Positions 7,314 to 55,595 of a stretch of DNA of 64,000 bases are shown here, piece after piece. Numbering within the stretch: position 1 is the first letter of the stretch; each line of letters opens with the position of its first letter. The DNA lies in contig NZ_JAGE01000002.1 of NCBI RefSeq assembly GCF_000526495.1, positions 124,001 through 188,000 of the forward strand. Reading direction: 5' to 3'. The notes beneath the pieces are model-generated. The model had not been told where the DNA came from. It saw nothing but the letters and a program-made list of their open reading frames with translations, and searched no databases. The DNA comes from Ruminiclostridium josui JCM 17888. Lineage in GTDB: Bacteria; Bacillota; Clostridia; Acetivibrionales; DSM-1351. A program made the translations under genes and the position numbers.

Positions 7314-7334
7314 TAAATAATTTCCAATAAGAAC

Positions 7335-7572
7335 AGTGTAATGAATGGGAATAGTAAACTGAAAAAAGTCCGTAGAGAGCTGTCGGTTGGTGAAAGACAG
7401 AGGCTTTGAAGGTTGAAGCTCGCCCAGGAGCATTTTCGGCTGAAATAAGTAAGCTGAAACGGTTTTCACCGTTATATGATTTAGAGAGAATTTCTTAAAA
7501 AAGAGATTAACTTGAGTGGTACCGCGGAAACATAGCTTTTCGTCTCAAAAAAACGAGACGAAAGGCTTTTTA
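7335..7572 (+). promoter_or_regulatory. T-box leader upstream of an acyl-CoA synthetase
   Basis: The leader has a Stem I start (GTAGAGAGC near 7370), a distal arm with GGTGAAAG, a specifier region near 7408-7418, the T-box sequence TGGTACCGCGG (7517-7527) and a terminator (AGCTTTTCGTCTC 7534-7546 with GAGACGAAAGGCT 7554-7566, then TTTTTATTTTT). Uncharged tRNA binding would favour the antiterminator. Aligned with the ileS T-box in this window, the specifier reads GTT (Val); GGT (Gly) in the adjacent register is the alternative. Confidence 0.92.
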
Positions 7573-15855: not shown

Positions 15856-16024
15856 TGGGTACTCCTAATTATTAAAATCCATTATATTGTATTCCAATAT
15901 TTTAATTATGTGATTTTATTTATAAGAGATTAGCTTAATGGTAAAAATTAAAATAGTAGCCTTGACGGCGGTCAGGTAGTTGATGTATTATTAATTTAAT
16001 ATAATATTAATATTCTAAATATGA

Positions 16025-16290
16025 TGATTGGAAAGAGTAGAAAGCAGTTGGCTTCACAGAGAGCGGAAGCGTGGTGGGATTTCCGCAAGTTCAAGCTTTT
16101 GAAAATCATCCATGAGTTGCAGCCTGAAATTCAATAAAATGTATATACATATGTTGAAGTAGGGTGTGCCGGTGATGAGCCGTTATAAAACGAAGTGATT
16201 ATTGTCATGTTATTATTTTTCATGCTACAAAATAATTTGGGTGGTACCGCGAAAATAGCCTCGTCCCTTTGATGGAACGGGGCTTTAATT
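16025..16290 (+). promoter_or_regulatory. isoleucine T-box leader of ileS
   Basis: Stem I begins near CAGAGAGCGGAAGC (about 16056). The specifier region reads GAAAATCATCC with ATC (Ile) at 16105-16107. The T-box TGGTACCGCG lies at 16242-16251 and a terminator (AGCCTCGTCC with GGAACGGGGCT, then TTTAATT) at about 16257-16290. Uncharged tRNA-Ile would allow read-through into ileS. Confidence 0.95.
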
Positions 16291-24973: not shown

Positions 24974-25552
24974 ATGAAACAGATTTTCATTAACGAGACA
25001 CCAGTGCCAAACATCACGATACATATGACGGAGAGGCGTGATCCATCGAAGATCTGCGAGTTATTCCCGGCTCTCAAATACGAGAAGCCATTTATGCTGG
25101 CCAGAGCCGTAAAGCAAGATCCAGAGCGTTACAGGATCGTCTCTGTTGGTGATGTCAAGATCTCCCCCACAAACTTCAGCTATGAATTAAGAGATGACGG
25201 CATCCACCTGTTTGTTGCGGCACTCATTGCCGAAATCGGAAAGTTCTCTGATCGTGATTATAATGACTGGGCCGCCTTCAGACGCGAGGCAGCTCTGACG
25301 ACAGGATTAGAGAGAAAGCAATCAAAGCCATTTTATTACACGGGAGACACGATCGTCATGATCAACAAGGAGGAGCTCCTGAAGGAATGGAGCATGGCAA
25401 GCGACCAAACCAAGGCCATAGCCATGATGTTATTGATTTCCAACCGATTGCACGGTCAAGAGAATGAAGCCTTGATGCATCCCGCAGCTGTCAGAACCGG
25501 AGCCAAGGTGATAGACTTCCAGATGGCCAGAGCAAGTCAACTCTACATATAG
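24974..25552 (+). CDS. element protein of unknown function, divergent from the repressor
   Basis: 192 residues, cytoplasmic, no signal peptide. I do not recognise a family. The first 60 residues look beta-rich (IFINETPVPNITIHMTERR), and the C-terminal third is helical (AIAMMLLISNRLHGQENEAL). AGAAGGGGG precedes the start. As the first gene of the rightward transcript it could be an antagonist or early regulator, but only its position suggests this. Confidence 0.7.
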   Translation: MKQIFINETPVPNITIHMTERRDPSKICELFPALKYEKPFMLARAVKQDPERYRIVSVGDVKISPTNFSYELRDDGIHLFVAALIAEIGKFSDRDYNDWAAFRREAALTTGLERKQSKPFYYTGDTIVMINKEELLKEWSMASDQTKAIAMMLLISNRLHGQENEALMHPAAVRTGAKVIDFQMARASQLYI

Positions 25553-25923
25553 CCGAAACGCCCACGCCGGGCGTCTGCCGGGAATGGCCTCCCGGCACTG
25601 ATGAAGGCAGGCCCCCGGGGATCGCCCGGGTAGGAATGGCGCGGGAAACTGTGCGACGAGTTCAAAACTCGCACAGGGAACCAAGTCCACCAGCGATCAC
25701 ACCTAAGTGGCAGCGGCCTGAATAAGCCGCTCCCCCGTACCGGTCGACAACCTCACAGGTTACCATAGAATCAACCTTTGAGCCGTCGAGCTGCCGAATA
25801 CAACCCATAACATGGGTCTATTTGGTAAGCCCGGCGGCTTTTATTGTTGCCCGGGAGCCAAAGCCCGAAACGAACAGAGCCAGACGCTGAGCTGGCATAC
25901 AGTCAAGGAAAGGAGTATGAACA
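25553..25923 (+). ncRNA. hairpin-rich intergenic region, candidate structured RNA
   Basis: A 370-base gap with successive inverted repeats: ACGCCC/GGGCGT (25558-25574), TGCCGGGA/TCCCGGCA (25576-25597), a GC-rich CCCGGG pair near 25613-25630, TGTGCG..GAGTT/AACTCGCACA (about 25650-25675), AGCGGC/GCCGCT (25712-25731), AACCT/AGGTT (25749-25761), and a closing AGCCGTCG/CGGCGGCT with TTTTATT near 25780-25843. The last part acts as a terminator. No protein is encoded. Function unknown; a run of unrelated short hairpins is the alternative. Confidence 0.5.
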
Positions 25924-51752: not shown

Positions 51753-52334
51753 ATGAATTTAAAAGATAGATATATTGAATTATATAATACGTATATCAAA
51801 CGTGAGGGAGCCGATAAACTTCTGGAATATATGCTGTCCAAATCAAGTGATTTCTTTACGGCCCCAGCAAGTACAAGGTTTCACGGCTCATATGAAGGTG
51901 GTTTGGTTGAACATAGTATAAATGTATATGAATGTTTGGTTGACTACCTTTCAAGGACAAGAGTAAAAAATATCTACGGTCTGAACTACGATTCAGAAAC
52001 TATTGCAATAGTTGCACTTTTACATGATATTTGTAAAATAAACTGTTACAAACCGGGAACTCGAAATGTAAAGGACGAACGTGGAGTTTGGCAGACAGTT
52101 CCAACATACGAGTATGATGATAGACTGCCTTATGGACATGGTGAAAAATCAGTATACATAATAACGGGATTTATGAGGCTGACCAGAGAGGAAGCCTTTG
52201 CAATAAGGTATCACATGGGTTTTTCCGGCTGTGAAGATAAAAGATGCATAGGGGATGCATTTGAGCAATTTCCGCTGGCATTTGCACTGTGTACGGCAGA
52301 CATGGAAGCTACTTATTTTATAGAAGGAAAATAA
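51753..52334 (+). CDS. HD-domain hydrolase
   Basis: 193 residues. EGGLVEHSINVYE gives the first metal His, ALLHDICKIN the HD pair, and LPYGHGEKSVYI a further His. It belongs to the HD phosphohydrolase/nuclease-like group near the YhaM C-terminal region, but has no OB domain. Substrate is unknown. AAAGGGG precedes the ATG. It appears monocistronic. Confidence 0.85.
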   Translation: MNLKDRYIELYNTYIKREGADKLLEYMLSKSSDFFTAPASTRFHGSYEGGLVEHSINVYECLVDYLSRTRVKNIYGLNYDSETIAIVALLHDICKINCYKPGTRNVKDERGVWQTVPTYEYDDRLPYGHGEKSVYIITGFMRLTREEAFAIRYHMGFSGCEDKRCIGDAFEQFPLAFALCTADMEATYFIEGK

Positions 52335-52436
52335 AGGGGATTATAAGGGATAACAATCAAAAAGTTCCCCAAAAGTATCACATTTTACGACTGAATGTAA
52401 AGTGATTAAATAAAATACAATATTTATTGTCCTATA

Positions 52437-52465
52437 TTGACAAAACTCGCCGACGAATGTTATAT
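52437..52465 (+). promoter_or_regulatory. promoter of the TrpP-ECF operon
   Basis: TTGACA (52437-52442), 17-base spacer, TTATAT (52460-52465). The predicted start falls immediately before the triplet repeats. Confidence 0.8.
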
Positions 52466-52477
52466 TCTTTACAAGTA

Positions 52478-52515
52478 GAGATGAGATGAGACGAGTTTAG
52501 ATTAGATGAGATGAG
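52478..52515 (+). promoter_or_regulatory. probable TRAP-binding site, eight (G/T)AG triplets
   Basis: GAG, GAG, GAG, GAG, TAG, TAG, GAG, GAG occur at exact 5-base intervals (starts 52478 to 52513), each separated by two bases. This is the binding pattern of the trp RNA-binding attenuation protein (11 triplets with 2-3-base spacers is the usual full site). It stands at the 5' end of the message for a TrpP-like transporter. Confidence 0.8.
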
Positions 52516-52594
52516 AAGCAAAAAAAGGACGAGTACGCCTGTTGTCTTAATAGGTTGTATTTTGTTTGGTTGTAAAAACTATATACGTAAACTC

Positions 52595-52630
52595 AAACCT
52601 CTACTAAAAAATATTGTTGGAGGTTTTTTT
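52595..52630 (+). promoter_or_regulatory. attenuator-like hairpin covering the trpP ribosome site
   Basis: AAACCTC (52595-52601) pairs with GAGGTTT (52620-52626), hiding GGAGG and followed by a T run to 52630, next to the ATG at 52631. An upstream AGGTTG could pair with CAAACCT as competitor. It may act as terminator or as a translation switch. Confidence 0.55.
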
Positions 52631-53191
52631 ATGGAAAAAAGAGTGGTTATAAAAGAGAAAAAAGCTGGCCTTACCATTTCTGATGTAATTCTTGTAGGTG
52701 TGTTACTGGCAACAGGGGCTGTACTTAAGTTTTTTGTGGGTTCTATGTTTAATGCCGGTATGAAACCAAATTTTGTTATTGCAATGTATTGTTTAGCAAT
52801 ACTTATAATAAAACCAAAGCTATCTGAAGCTATAATTATAGGCATTATAGCAGGAGCTATCTGTCAGGTTCTTCCGGGTACACCATATATAAATTTAATA
52901 AGTGAACCATTAGGTACCCTTGTAATGTCTATTCTTATAAGCCTACCTCTGAAGTTTAAGCCCTATTCACTATTAAAACCCATATTAGGTACTTTCCTGA
53001 GTACTTTGGCAAGTGGACTTGCTTTTCTTGGGGTACTGTATATTGCATTTTATGCAGGTGCGAATGTAGAGACAATACCCTTCAGTGCATTTATAGTAAT
53101 GATACTGTTAACTGCCGTAGTAAATGCAGTAATAGTTCAGATTCTTTATATACCTGTAAAACTGGCATTGGGACGTGGCAAAGATGATTGA
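52631..53191 (+). CDS. trpP: TrpP-like tryptophan transport protein (ECF S component)
   Basis: 186 residues, five to six membrane helices. ISDVILVGVLLATGAVLKFF, GMKPNFVIAMYCLAILIIKP and PGTPYINLISEPLGTLV match the TrpP family of tryptophan uptake proteins. The two ATPases and a T subunit follow with overlaps, so it should be the substrate-binding S component of an ECF transporter. Start 52631 has GGAGG at 52619. Tryptophan as substrate is supported by the upstream triplet repeats. Confidence 0.85.
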   Translation: MEKRVVIKEKKAGLTISDVILVGVLLATGAVLKFFVGSMFNAGMKPNFVIAMYCLAILIIKPKLSEAIIIGIIAGAICQVLPGTPYINLISEPLGTLVMSILISLPLKFKPYSLLKPILGTFLSTLASGLAFLGVLYIAFYAGANVETIPFSAFIVMILLTAVVNAVIVQILYIPVKLALGRGKDD

Positions 53192-54023
53192 GTTCAAGGA
53201 TTTCTCATTTAAATACAAAACAGGTGAAAAGCCTGCATTAACAATAAAGAACCTCTCTATTCAAAAAGGTGATTTCGTGGGTATCATAGGGAATAGCGGA
53301 GCAGGCAAGTCAACCTTTACCTATGCAGTTAACGGAGTTATTCCCCATCACTATGAAGGTGACTTTTATGGTGAGGTCAGGGTGAAGGGGCAGGACACTG
53401 TTGATTTATCACCGACTCAGCTGGCATTGAGTGTAGGAAGTGTATTTCAAGATATTGACGGACAGATGGTATCTTCAGTTGTAGAAGATGAGATACTATT
53501 TGGTTTGGAGAATTTTGGAGTCCCTAAAGAAGAAATTGAGAAGAGAATAACAGATATACTTAAAATGGTAGGTATAGAAGATTTACGTTATAGAAACATC
53601 AACACACTAAGCGGCGGTCAAAAGCAAAAGGTTGCCATATCGGCTGTAGTTGCAATGATGCCTGACATACTGGTACTTGACGAGCCAACTGCCGAACTTG
53701 ACCCACAGAGCAGCCTGCAGATATATAATATGTTGAAAATGCTTAACGAAAACCTAAATATAACAATTATAGTTGTTGAACAAAAAATAATGTTACTCAG
53801 TGAGTTTTCCAAGAGAATCATAGTTTTGGACAGTGGTGAAATCTATTTAGAGGGGACGCCAAAAGAGGTGCTGAGTGACACTACAAAATTGACTGATATT
53901 GGTGTTAACTGTCCAAGGGTATCTTCTCTGGCAAACAATCTTAAGCAGCGAAAAATATATAATGGACCGGTTCCCGTCAATTTAAATGAGGCCGAAACCA
54001 TGGTAAGGAGTGTACTTGGGTGA
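53184..54023 (+). CDS. ecfA1: ECF transporter ATPase subunit A1
   Basis: 279 residues. Walker A GNSGAGKSTF, Q loop VFQDIDGQ, signature LSGGQKQKVAI, Walker B ILVLDEPTAELD and the H-loop position occupied by VVEQK. The start overlaps the S-component stop by eight bases. It powers uptake together with the next gene's product and the T subunit. Confidence 0.9.
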   Translation: MIEFKDFSFKYKTGEKPALTIKNLSIQKGDFVGIIGNSGAGKSTFTYAVNGVIPHHYEGDFYGEVRVKGQDTVDLSPTQLALSVGSVFQDIDGQMVSSVVEDEILFGLENFGVPKEEIEKRITDILKMVGIEDLRYRNINTLSGGQKQKVAISAVVAMMPDILVLDEPTAELDPQSSLQIYNMLKMLNENLNITIIVVEQKIMLLSEFSKRIIVLDSGEIYLEGTPKEVLSDTTKLTDIGVNCPRVSSLANNLKQRKIYNGPVPVNLNEAETMVRSVLG

Positions 54024-54829
54024 TAAATTTCAATAACGTGTGTTTTGCCTATGACAAAATAAATATTCTCAACAACATAAGTCTATCGGTAGCAAAAGGA
54101 GAATTTGTTGCTATTGTGGGCAGAAATGGTGCAGGAAAGACAACACTTATGAAGCTTCTAAACGGTTTACTCAAACCCACTTCTGGTACAGTCACCATTG
54201 CAGGTTTAAATACCTCTGTAACAAGGACGAGTGAACTGGCAAAGCATGTAGGATTTCTATTTCAAAACCCTGACAGGCAGATTTGCCGTAACACAGTTAA
54301 GGAAGAGATAGAATTCGGCCTAAAATGTATTTTGACAGACACTGCAGATATAGAAAAAAGGTGCAGAAACACAATAGAGAAATTTGCTTTGATTCCTGAC
54401 AAGGACCCGTTTTCTCTAAGCAGGGGAGAGAGACAGAAAATCGCACTTGCATCAGTACTGGCTTTGTCTCCCGAAATACTGGTATTGGATGAACCTACTA
54501 CCGGATTAGACTACAAGGAATGTATGCATATTATGGAAATCATTAATGAACTAAACCACAACGAAACTACTGTTGTCATGGTATGCCATGATATGGAATT
54601 GGTAGCTGATTTTGCACAAAGGATAATTGTGGTGGGGGAAGGCCGTATACTTGCTGACGATACTTGCCGCAGAGTAATGTCACAGACTGAGATATTAAAA
54701 GAGGCATCTCTGACACCACCACAGATAGCTGACCTTGCTATTCGGCTTGGAAAAGGTTTTGAGGACATATTTACATTGGATGAAATGACAGAAATTATAT
54801 CACAAAAAGCCAAGAAAGAGGGTGTATAA
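54020..54829 (+). CDS. ecfA2: ECF transporter ATPase subunit A2
   Basis: 269 residues, GTG start overlapping the previous stop (GTGA). Walker A GRNGAGKTTL, Q loop LFQNPDRQI, signature LSRGERQKIAL (Arg in place of the usual second Gly), Walker B ILVLDEPTTGLD and switch CHDME. It pairs with A1 as a heterodimer. Confidence 0.9.
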   Translation: MINFNNVCFAYDKINILNNISLSVAKGEFVAIVGRNGAGKTTLMKLLNGLLKPTSGTVTIAGLNTSVTRTSELAKHVGFLFQNPDRQICRNTVKEEIEFGLKCILTDTADIEKRCRNTIEKFALIPDKDPFSLSRGERQKIALASVLALSPEILVLDEPTTGLDYKECMHIMEIINELNHNETTVVMVCHDMELVADFAQRIIVVGEGRILADDTCRRVMSQTEILKEASLTPPQIADLAIRLGKGFEDIFTLDEMTEIISQKAKKEGV

Positions 54830-54830
54830 T

Positions 54831-55595
54831 GTGAAGGGCATTTTAGAATACAGCCAGGGTGATACCTATATACACAAGTTAAACCCTTTATCAAAAATGT
54901 TAATTGCTTTTTTACTATGCTTGAGCTGCTTTGCCAGCAGTAACATTTTTTGTACAATTGGAATTATTGCTGTAAACCTTTTTATAGCCTATCTTGCTGG
55001 AATTATTGGCAGGGCATTTTCTTTGCTGGCTACGCTACTTAAAATAGGAATTGTACTTTTTTTATTGCAAGTATTTTTCATTAGATCTGGGAATATCCTT
55101 TTAAATCTTCCATTCAATTTATATATTACAGATATAGGCTTGAAATTCAGTATAATGCTAGTCTTGAGACTTGTAGGAGCTACTATGCCTTTGGTTATAA
55201 TTCTGACAGTTACCAGAATGAGCGATATTACTAATGTTATGGTACAGAAACTTCATATACCTTATAAGTATACCTTTGCATTTATAACAGCCCTAAGATT
55301 TATACCTATTTTTGAAAATGAAATGACAGGTATAATTGAAGCTCAGACCGCAAGAGGAGTTGAATTTGACACAAAAAACCCTGTAAAGAAGTTGAAATTG
55401 TTGCTTCCACTTTGTGTTCCACTTCTTATTTCCTCTGTAAAACGGATTGAGGGCAGTGCAATATCTGCTGAATTAAGGGGATTTAATTTAAGACGTAAGG
55501 ACAGCGGGTATAAAACATATGGTTTTGTTGTATTGGATTATTTTGCAATACTGTTATCAATATTGATATTACTTACATGTATTATCTTTTTTTAG
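54831..55595 (+). CDS. ecfT: ECF transporter transmembrane subunit T
   Basis: 254 residues. Start taken as GTG at 54831 (a GTG at 54822 is possible); AAAGAGGG upstream. Several membrane helices plus the coupling-helix motifs (ARGVEFDTK and ELRGFNLRRKD, both of the A-R-G type). It couples the ATPases to the S component. Last gene of the operon, ending three bases before a convergent gene. Confidence 0.9.
   Translation: MKGILEYSQGDTYIHKLNPLSKMLIAFLLCLSCFASSNIFCTIGIIAVNLFIAYLAGIIGRAFSLLATLLKIGIVLFLLQVFFIRSGNILLNLPFNLYITDIGLKFSIMLVLRLVGATMPLVIILTVTRMSDITNVMVQKLHIPYKYTFAFITALRFIPIFENEMTGIIEAQTARGVEFDTKNPVKKLKLLLPLCVPLLISSVKRIEGSAISAELRGFNLRRKDSGYKTYGFVVLDYFAILLSILILLTCIIFF

What the first reader, a model, noticed from the sequence alone, without database searches (positions are those of the whole stretch)
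52437..52633. TRAP-like triplet array on an ECF tryptophan transporter operon in a Clostridium
Seen: eight (G/T)AG triplets at exact 5-base spacing directly after a promoter, then a hairpin covering GGAGG before a TrpP-like gene with ecfA1-A2-T. Known: TRAP binds such arrays in Bacillus and controls trp genes and trpP. The distance from the array to the start (116 bases) and the U-tailed hairpin suggest attenuation rather than simple blocking. TRAP in this lineage would be noteworthy.
Basis: partly seen in the sequence, partly recalled or inferred. Interest (0 to 1): 0.82.

Follow-up and report, generated by a model that had tools for sequence, protein, structure and literature searches.

The report
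TRAP-controlled tryptophan importer in Ruminiclostridium
A relative of Ruminiclostridium papyrosolvens carries the tryptophan-sensing RNA-binding protein TRAP and a matching binding array in front of its tryptophan importer genes, so import is probably shut off by free tryptophan, while the genes that make tryptophan carry a different, tRNA-sensing switch.

Summary
The array is real: eight (G/T)AG triplets at an exact 5-base period (52478-52515), 115 nt before an ECF S-component gene of the TrpP family. It is the genome's only run of five or more exactly spaced triplets. TRAP is not exotic here: mtrB is in 53 of 58 genomes of the order, and of 30 arrays examined, 27 precede tryptophan genes. 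The unexpected part is a split. In the genus, trpE has a T-box in 10 of 11 genomes and an array in none; of 29 other genomes, 28 have triplets and none a T-box. No genome of 48 examined has both. Most likely TRAP holds the array single-stranded so that the GGAGG hairpin represses translation of the importer; binding and sign of regulation are inferred, and in folding models this leader's hairpin mostly forms without TRAP too. Transcription termination is not supported: the scan found no terminator.

The parts
52437..52466 (+). Promoter-like site TTGACA-18-TATATT, conserved in the 10 genus leaders
   Evidence: Scan 11 of 12; TTGACA and TATATT columns invariant
52478..52515 (+). Array of eight (G/T)AG triplets at exact 5-nt period, predicted TRAP binding site (near-cognate AAG at 52473-52475 in register)
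52474..52480 (+). AGUAGAG, overlaps the first triplet; complementary to CUCUACU at 52599-52605 (proposed anti-sequestering pairing)
   Evidence: Pairs in 70 of 70 cells of 10 genus leaders, one one-sided change, no two-sided change
52595..52626 (+). Hairpin AAACCUC...GAGGUUU hiding the Shine-Dalgarno GGAGG (52619-52623)
   Evidence: Inner 6 pairs hold in 59 of 60 cells; model probability 0.90 free, 1.00 with the array masked
52631..53191 (+). trpP-like gene, ECF S component
   Evidence: PF17099 35.1 bits over cut-off 27.2; model resembles ECF S components
53184..54023 (+). ECF ATPase
   Evidence: PF00005; best NCBIfam match TIGR04520, below its cut-off
54020..54829 (+). Second ECF ATPase
   Evidence: PF00005; best NCBIfam match TIGR04521, below its cut-off
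54822..55595 (+). ECF T component (CbiQ family)
   Evidence: PF02361 98.6 bits over cut-off 25

Best explanation
The array is a binding site for the TRAP protein (MtrB) encoded elsewhere in the same genome. With free tryptophan, TRAP wraps the 5' end of the trpP-ecfAA'T transcript. The array can then no longer pair with the CUCUACU segment downstream, the CCUC...GAGG hairpin forms over the ribosome-binding site, and translation of the importer is repressed. Without tryptophan TRAP lets go, the array competes for CUCUACU, and the ribosome-binding site is freer. Shown: array, mtrB, conservation, gene content. Inferred: TRAP binding, sign of regulation, the pairing switch, tryptophan as substrate. 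The trp operon of the same genome carries a Trp T-box and no array. The confidence given is for TRAP plus translation repression; I put a TRAP target of some kind at about 0.93.
For: mtrB at E 6.6e-39, over the cut-off of the MtrB equivalog model. Only array of its kind in the genome. 10 of 10 genus genomes with trpP keep the array while the stretch behind it diverges; G034 lost exactly one 5-nt unit. 5 of 16 named trpP-like loci have the array, and just these 5 genomes have mtrB. Across the order, 27 of 30 examined arrays precede trpE, trpD, a TrpB-like gene or trpP; 30 of 53 genomes with mtrB and 0 of 5 without have a 6-triplet array. Residues K37, K56, R58 (recalled as RNA contacts) are the same in 35 of 35 MtrB loci. 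Masking the array raises the hairpin over the Shine-Dalgarno sequence by 0.2 or more in 4 of 15 trpP and 7 of 11 trpE leaders. UACU, in the hairpin loop, is kept in 9 of 10 leaders.
Against: For this very leader the model hairpin forms at 0.90 without TRAP, and array-arm complementarity is no better than with shuffled spacers (0.345) and only borderline against shuffled arms (0.045). No two-sided base changes support either helix. Eight triplets, fewer than the 9-11 quoted for B. subtilis. G046 has triplet-bearing trpP and trpE leaders but no mtrB was found; G033 has mtrB but neither trpP nor a 6-triplet array. No experiment.
Confidence: 0.65

Rival explanations
1. Same TRAP site, but acting by transcription attenuation: TRAP binding favours a terminator (the U-tailed hairpin at 52595-52630, or the hairpin around 52530-52550) before the gene.
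For: Hairpin followed by U residues in the window; related trpP leaders in other families (for example L088, L091) and many trpE leaders show, by eye, an additional G+C-rich hairpin with a U run between array and Shine-Dalgarno hairpin.
Against: Terminator scan of 52330-52700 found 0 sites; the hairpin is the one that holds the GGAGG, with a large loop and A-U pairs taking up part of the U run.
Confidence: 0.2
2. TRAP binds the 5' end but works otherwise: RNA stability, or an effect on the transcribing polymerase close to the promoter, without need of the hairpin.
For: The array begins a few bases after the inferred transcription start, and this position is kept in the genus.
Against: Conservation of CCUCUACU and GGAGG far downstream is then unexplained.
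Confidence: 0.1
3. The triplets are a chance or low-complexity repeat, or a site for another factor.
For: Repeats do match the pattern: of 30 arrays examined one (L100) lies in a repetitive coding gene, and G065 also has a TAGAA microsatellite.
Against: Far above shuffles; spacers vary while triplets keep register; mtrB present; 27 of 30 arrays before tryptophan genes.
Confidence: 0.03

Closest known systems
TRAP control of trpP (yhaG) in Bacillus subtilis
   Same: Same regulator family, triplet motif and transporter family
   Different: In B. subtilis the site lies in the translation initiation region and blocks the ribosome directly (passage of PMC11255114); here it lies 115 nt upstream, at the 5' end, and the gene is joined to its own ecfAA'T
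TRAP control of the B. subtilis trpEDCFBA leader
   Same: Distal array, then a hairpin that hides the Shine-Dalgarno sequence (passages)
   Different: No terminator found here; importer instead of biosynthesis; eight triplets instead of eleven
Trp-specific T-box leaders
   Same: They stand before related genes: the trp operon of this genome and the trpP-like gene of L007
   Different: They respond to uncharged tRNA-Trp (recalled); no T-box at the window's trpP

Membership tests
TRAP (MtrB) protein | Match to the MtrB family over curated cut-offs | tested here: met
   PF02081 134.8 bits, cut-off 21.3; NF009724 136.4 bits, cut-off 117
TRAP (MtrB) protein | RNA-contact residues K37, K56, R58 (recalled) | tested here: met
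   Same in 35 of 35 loci
TRAP-regulated transcript | Run of (G/U)AG triplets with 2-3 nt spacers | tested here: met
   Eight, all with 2-nt spacers
TRAP-regulated transcript | 9-11 triplets, as quoted for B. subtilis | tested here: not met
   Eight, nine with the near-cognate AAG; number quoted from PMC4347634 passage
TRAP-regulated transcript | Tryptophan-dependent binding of TRAP and repression | not testable with these tools
TRAP-regulated transcript | Binding-state switch of a downstream structure | tested here: inconclusive
   0.90 to 1.00 in this leader, 0.17 to 1.00 in two genus relatives; duplex test weak
Intrinsic-terminator attenuator | G+C-rich stem followed directly by a T run | tested here: not met
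   0 sites in 52330-52700
ECF S component, TrpP family | PF17099 over cut-off, S-component fold, EcfA and EcfT genes beside it | tested here: met
   fold matches have probability 0.87-1.00 but no E-value under 0.001
ECF S component, TrpP family | Transports tryptophan | not testable with these tools
   Indirect only: array here; UGG at the specifier position of the T-box before the L007 relative

The most novel reading that the evidence does not exclude
In Ruminiclostridium the two known tryptophan sensors are split by function: tRNA-Trp charging (T-box) governs synthesis and free tryptophan (TRAP) governs import. TRAP has shrunk from the biosynthetic regulator it is in sister families to essentially one operon, through a swap of the leader or of the whole trp operon in this lineage.
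Probability: 0.5. Interest if true: 0.7.

Novelty: new variant of a known kind. Interest (0 to 1): 0.6.

Why it matters
TRAP is best known from Bacillus. An order of anaerobes in which nearly every genome has TRAP, and in which the trpE leaders examined carry either TRAP triplets or a T-box but never both, is a natural experiment on why bacteria sense free tryptophan or charged tRNA. The genus divides import and synthesis between the two sensors, which reporter fusions could test directly. It also offers a candidate tryptophan-regulated leader for cellulolytic clostridia.

Tried and rejected
Anti-TRAP (PF15777): 10 of 58 genomes had weak matches, 0 over the cut-off; the one in this genome lies in a 406-residue frame, probably DnaJ-like (inferred); the control search also rang in non-TRAP genomes. 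None is claimed. Rfam at gathering score on L007, L029 and L087-L092 found nothing; the two T-boxes score 86.5 and 86.3, under the gathering score of 93, and appear only with the E-value threshold. Terminator reading: not met. Anti-sequestering pairing: fraction 0.05 or less in 4 of 26 leaders against shuffled spacers and 9 of 26 against shuffled arms, so proposed, not shown. Of 13 trpE leaders, 11 were folded; L113 and L117 were left out, and L092 (truncated trpP match) was left out of the trpP set (15 folded). In L087 the mask covered only part of the triplets. The reversed-pattern control is not clean for this motif, because GAG reads the same backwards: it rang in 11 of 58 genomes. I relied on downstream genes and on shuffles instead. 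TRAP sites with uneven spacing elsewhere in this genome are not excluded. Papers looked up and not held.

Full report
What is there. The leader has a promoter-like site (TTGACA-18-TATATT), eight (G/T)AG triplets with exactly two-base spacers (52478-52515), a stretch that varies between relatives, then a hairpin over GGAGG (52619-52623) and an ATG at 52631. In 2000 shuffles of the 310-nt leader no exact-5 chain exceeded 4. In the whole 4.47 Mb genome the only run of five or more exactly spaced triplets is this one; the reversed control found none.

The protein that would bind it. The genome encodes MtrB (L001:1471-1707): PF02081 134.8 bits, NCBIfam MtrB equivalog 136.4 over a cut-off of 117, and 15 solved sequences as matches, those listed being named MtrB or TRAP. 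It equals the B. subtilis chain at 46 of 70 aligned residues, and K37, K56 and R58 (recalled as RNA contacts) are the same in 35 of 35 MtrB loci; L018 and L071 appear to be one genome, so 34 genomes. Only 35 loci were compared, not all matches. Anti-TRAP: 0 of 58 genomes over the cut-off.

Conservation. Of 16 trpP-like loci from named records, five carry the array: R. papyrosolvens, R. cellobioparum, R. cellobioparum subsp. termitidis, R. hungatei (7 of 8 positions) and a MAG labelled Eubacterium. These five genomes have mtrB; the other 11 do not. Of those 11 (one Clostridiales MAG, ten Treponema or Spirochaetaceae), ten have no triplet array and one (L016) holds no upstream DNA (L008 has a 7-base repeat that matches KAG but is not at 5-6 nt). 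In the genus, mtrB is in 11 of 11, trpP in 10 of 11, and all ten trpP leaders have the array with 7 or 8 cognate triplets. G035, G037, G038 and G040 have one degenerate position each, and G034 has lost exactly one 5-nt unit. Behind the array the leaders are highly diverged; CCUCUACU (UGCU in one) and GGAGG (GGGGG in one) are kept.

The order. mtrB is in 53 of 58 genomes, 26 of 30 genera, and in 89 of 391 genomes sampled from the class. A 6-triplet exact-5 array is in 30 of 58 genomes, namely 30 of 53 with mtrB and 0 of 5 without. I read one array per genome (30 loci; a few genomes have a second). Downstream are trpE 13, trpP 9, trpD 3, a TrpB-like gene 2, a methyltransferase-like gene 2, and one array inside a repetitive coding gene. 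Families were checked by profile for the 19 trpE, trpD and TrpB-like genes, for L099 and L102, and for 4 of the 9 trpP genes there; the window's own is, the others were told by similarity or position. At two trpD (L114, L123) and both TrpB-like genes the array runs over the start codon, the direct-blocking layout known from B. subtilis. By eye, many trpE leaders and the distant trpP leaders have the array, a hairpin with a U run, then a second hairpin at the Shine-Dalgarno sequence.

TRAP or T-box. This genome's trp operon has a T-box (86.5 bits; Rfam's gathering score is 93) with UGG aligned to the specifier position, and no array. In the genus, 10 of 11 best trpE genes have a T-box and 0 of 11 an array; G035's best trpE, below the model's cut-off, has neither. 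Of 29 other genomes whose trpE locus was returned, 0 have a T-box. Of these 29, 28 have at least 7 triplets in 60 nt and 28 a chain of at least 4; each misses one, not the same one. Shuffles reach these marks in 15.9% and 0.55% of cases, so the chain is the better measure; the antisense strands reach them in 0 of 29. Of 8 further genomes fetched by coordinates, 7 have a T-box and no chain over 3, and one (G029, a lower-scoring trpE) neither. Thus of 48 genomes examined none has both; the other 10 of the order were not examined for this. Whether a leader swap or transfer of the operon made the split is untested; the two groups also differ in score to the same trpE model, which hints at two trpE lineages. 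T-boxes occur outside the genus too, so the swap is not confined to it.

Mechanism. The 5' arm CCUC overlaps CUCUACU, which is complementary over 7 bp to AGUAGAG at the start of the array. The two helices pair in 70 of 70 and 59 of 60 cells over 10 genus leaders, with no two-sided change: conservation, not covariation. UACU lies in the hairpin loop and is kept in 9 of 10, which the hairpin alone does not explain. Forbidding the array to pair raises the model probability of the Shine-Dalgarno hairpin from 0.17 to 1.00 in two genus leaders, but only from 0.90 to 1.00 in the window's own; the rise is at least 0.2 in 4 of 15 trpP and 7 of 11 trpE leaders. The duplex test gives 0.345 (spacers shuffled) and 0.045 (arm shuffled) for this leader; in the nine other genus leaders the arm test gives 0.10 to 0.66. 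I therefore rate TRAP control very likely, translation repression through the hairpin the most likely route, and the anti-sequestering pairing a proposal.

The operon. The first gene is TrpP-like (35.1 bits over 27.2; no NCBIfam match). A model (pLDDT 80.8, pTM 0.79) has as its first 16 PDB matches ECF S components or ECF complexes (ThiT and 4huq by recall, the rest by title), probability 0.87-1.00, no E-value under 0.001. Two ATPases and a T component follow. A relative with 48-56% identity (L007) stands behind a T-box with UGG at the specifier position, which supports tryptophan as substrate.

Known and new. TRAP and its triplet arrays are known from B. subtilis, where the trpP site is in the translation initiation region and the trp leader uses a terminator and a Shine-Dalgarno hairpin (passages of PMC11255114 and PMC4347634). 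A 2008 T-box survey marks Firmicutes that have TRAP in a figure legend (passages of PMC2494555). The searches (listings only) showed no title or abstract on TRAP arrays in Ruminiclostridium or its relatives. The library lacks most subscription papers, including comparative work on trp regulation that I recall but could not read, so I do not claim that this is unpublished.

Results against. G046 has triplet-bearing trpP and trpE leaders (L089, L160) but no mtrB was found in its 99%-complete draft. G033 has mtrB but neither trpP nor a 6-triplet array, and its trpE has a T-box, so TRAP must have other or degenerate targets there, or be idle. 23 of 53 mtrB genomes lack a 6-triplet array by the strict pattern; several of them have uneven clusters at trpE.

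Noticed in passing
window 7332-7550 and 16015-16271 (+): Two T-box leaders over Rfam's gathering score.
   Followed up: no
window 25551-25616 (+): Type II hammerhead ribozyme match, 53 bits over a gathering score of 37.
   Followed up: no
L099 and L102 (G025, G029), array near locus base 1500, minus strand: Triplet arrays over the start of a methyltransferase-like gene (Pfam over cut-off in L099 only), followed in L099 by a chorismate-mutase-like ORF (by eye): a possible new TRAP target.
   Followed up: partly
L114, L123, L115, L118: Arrays running over the start codons of trpD and of a TrpB-like gene, the direct-blocking layout.
   Followed up: partly
L009-L015, L017, about 50-150 bases before the trpP-like gene: Treponema and Spirochaetaceae relatives have a palindrome-like motif around GTTACTNNNNACAGTAAC instead of triplets (seen by eye), possibly an operator.
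   Followed up: no
G033 (4.1 Mb, same genus): mtrB without trpP and without a 6-triplet array: TRAP with no known target.
   Followed up: no
L092 (G031): trpP-like match from residue 67 on only, behind an array-like leader that seems joined to a truncated gene.
   Followed up: no
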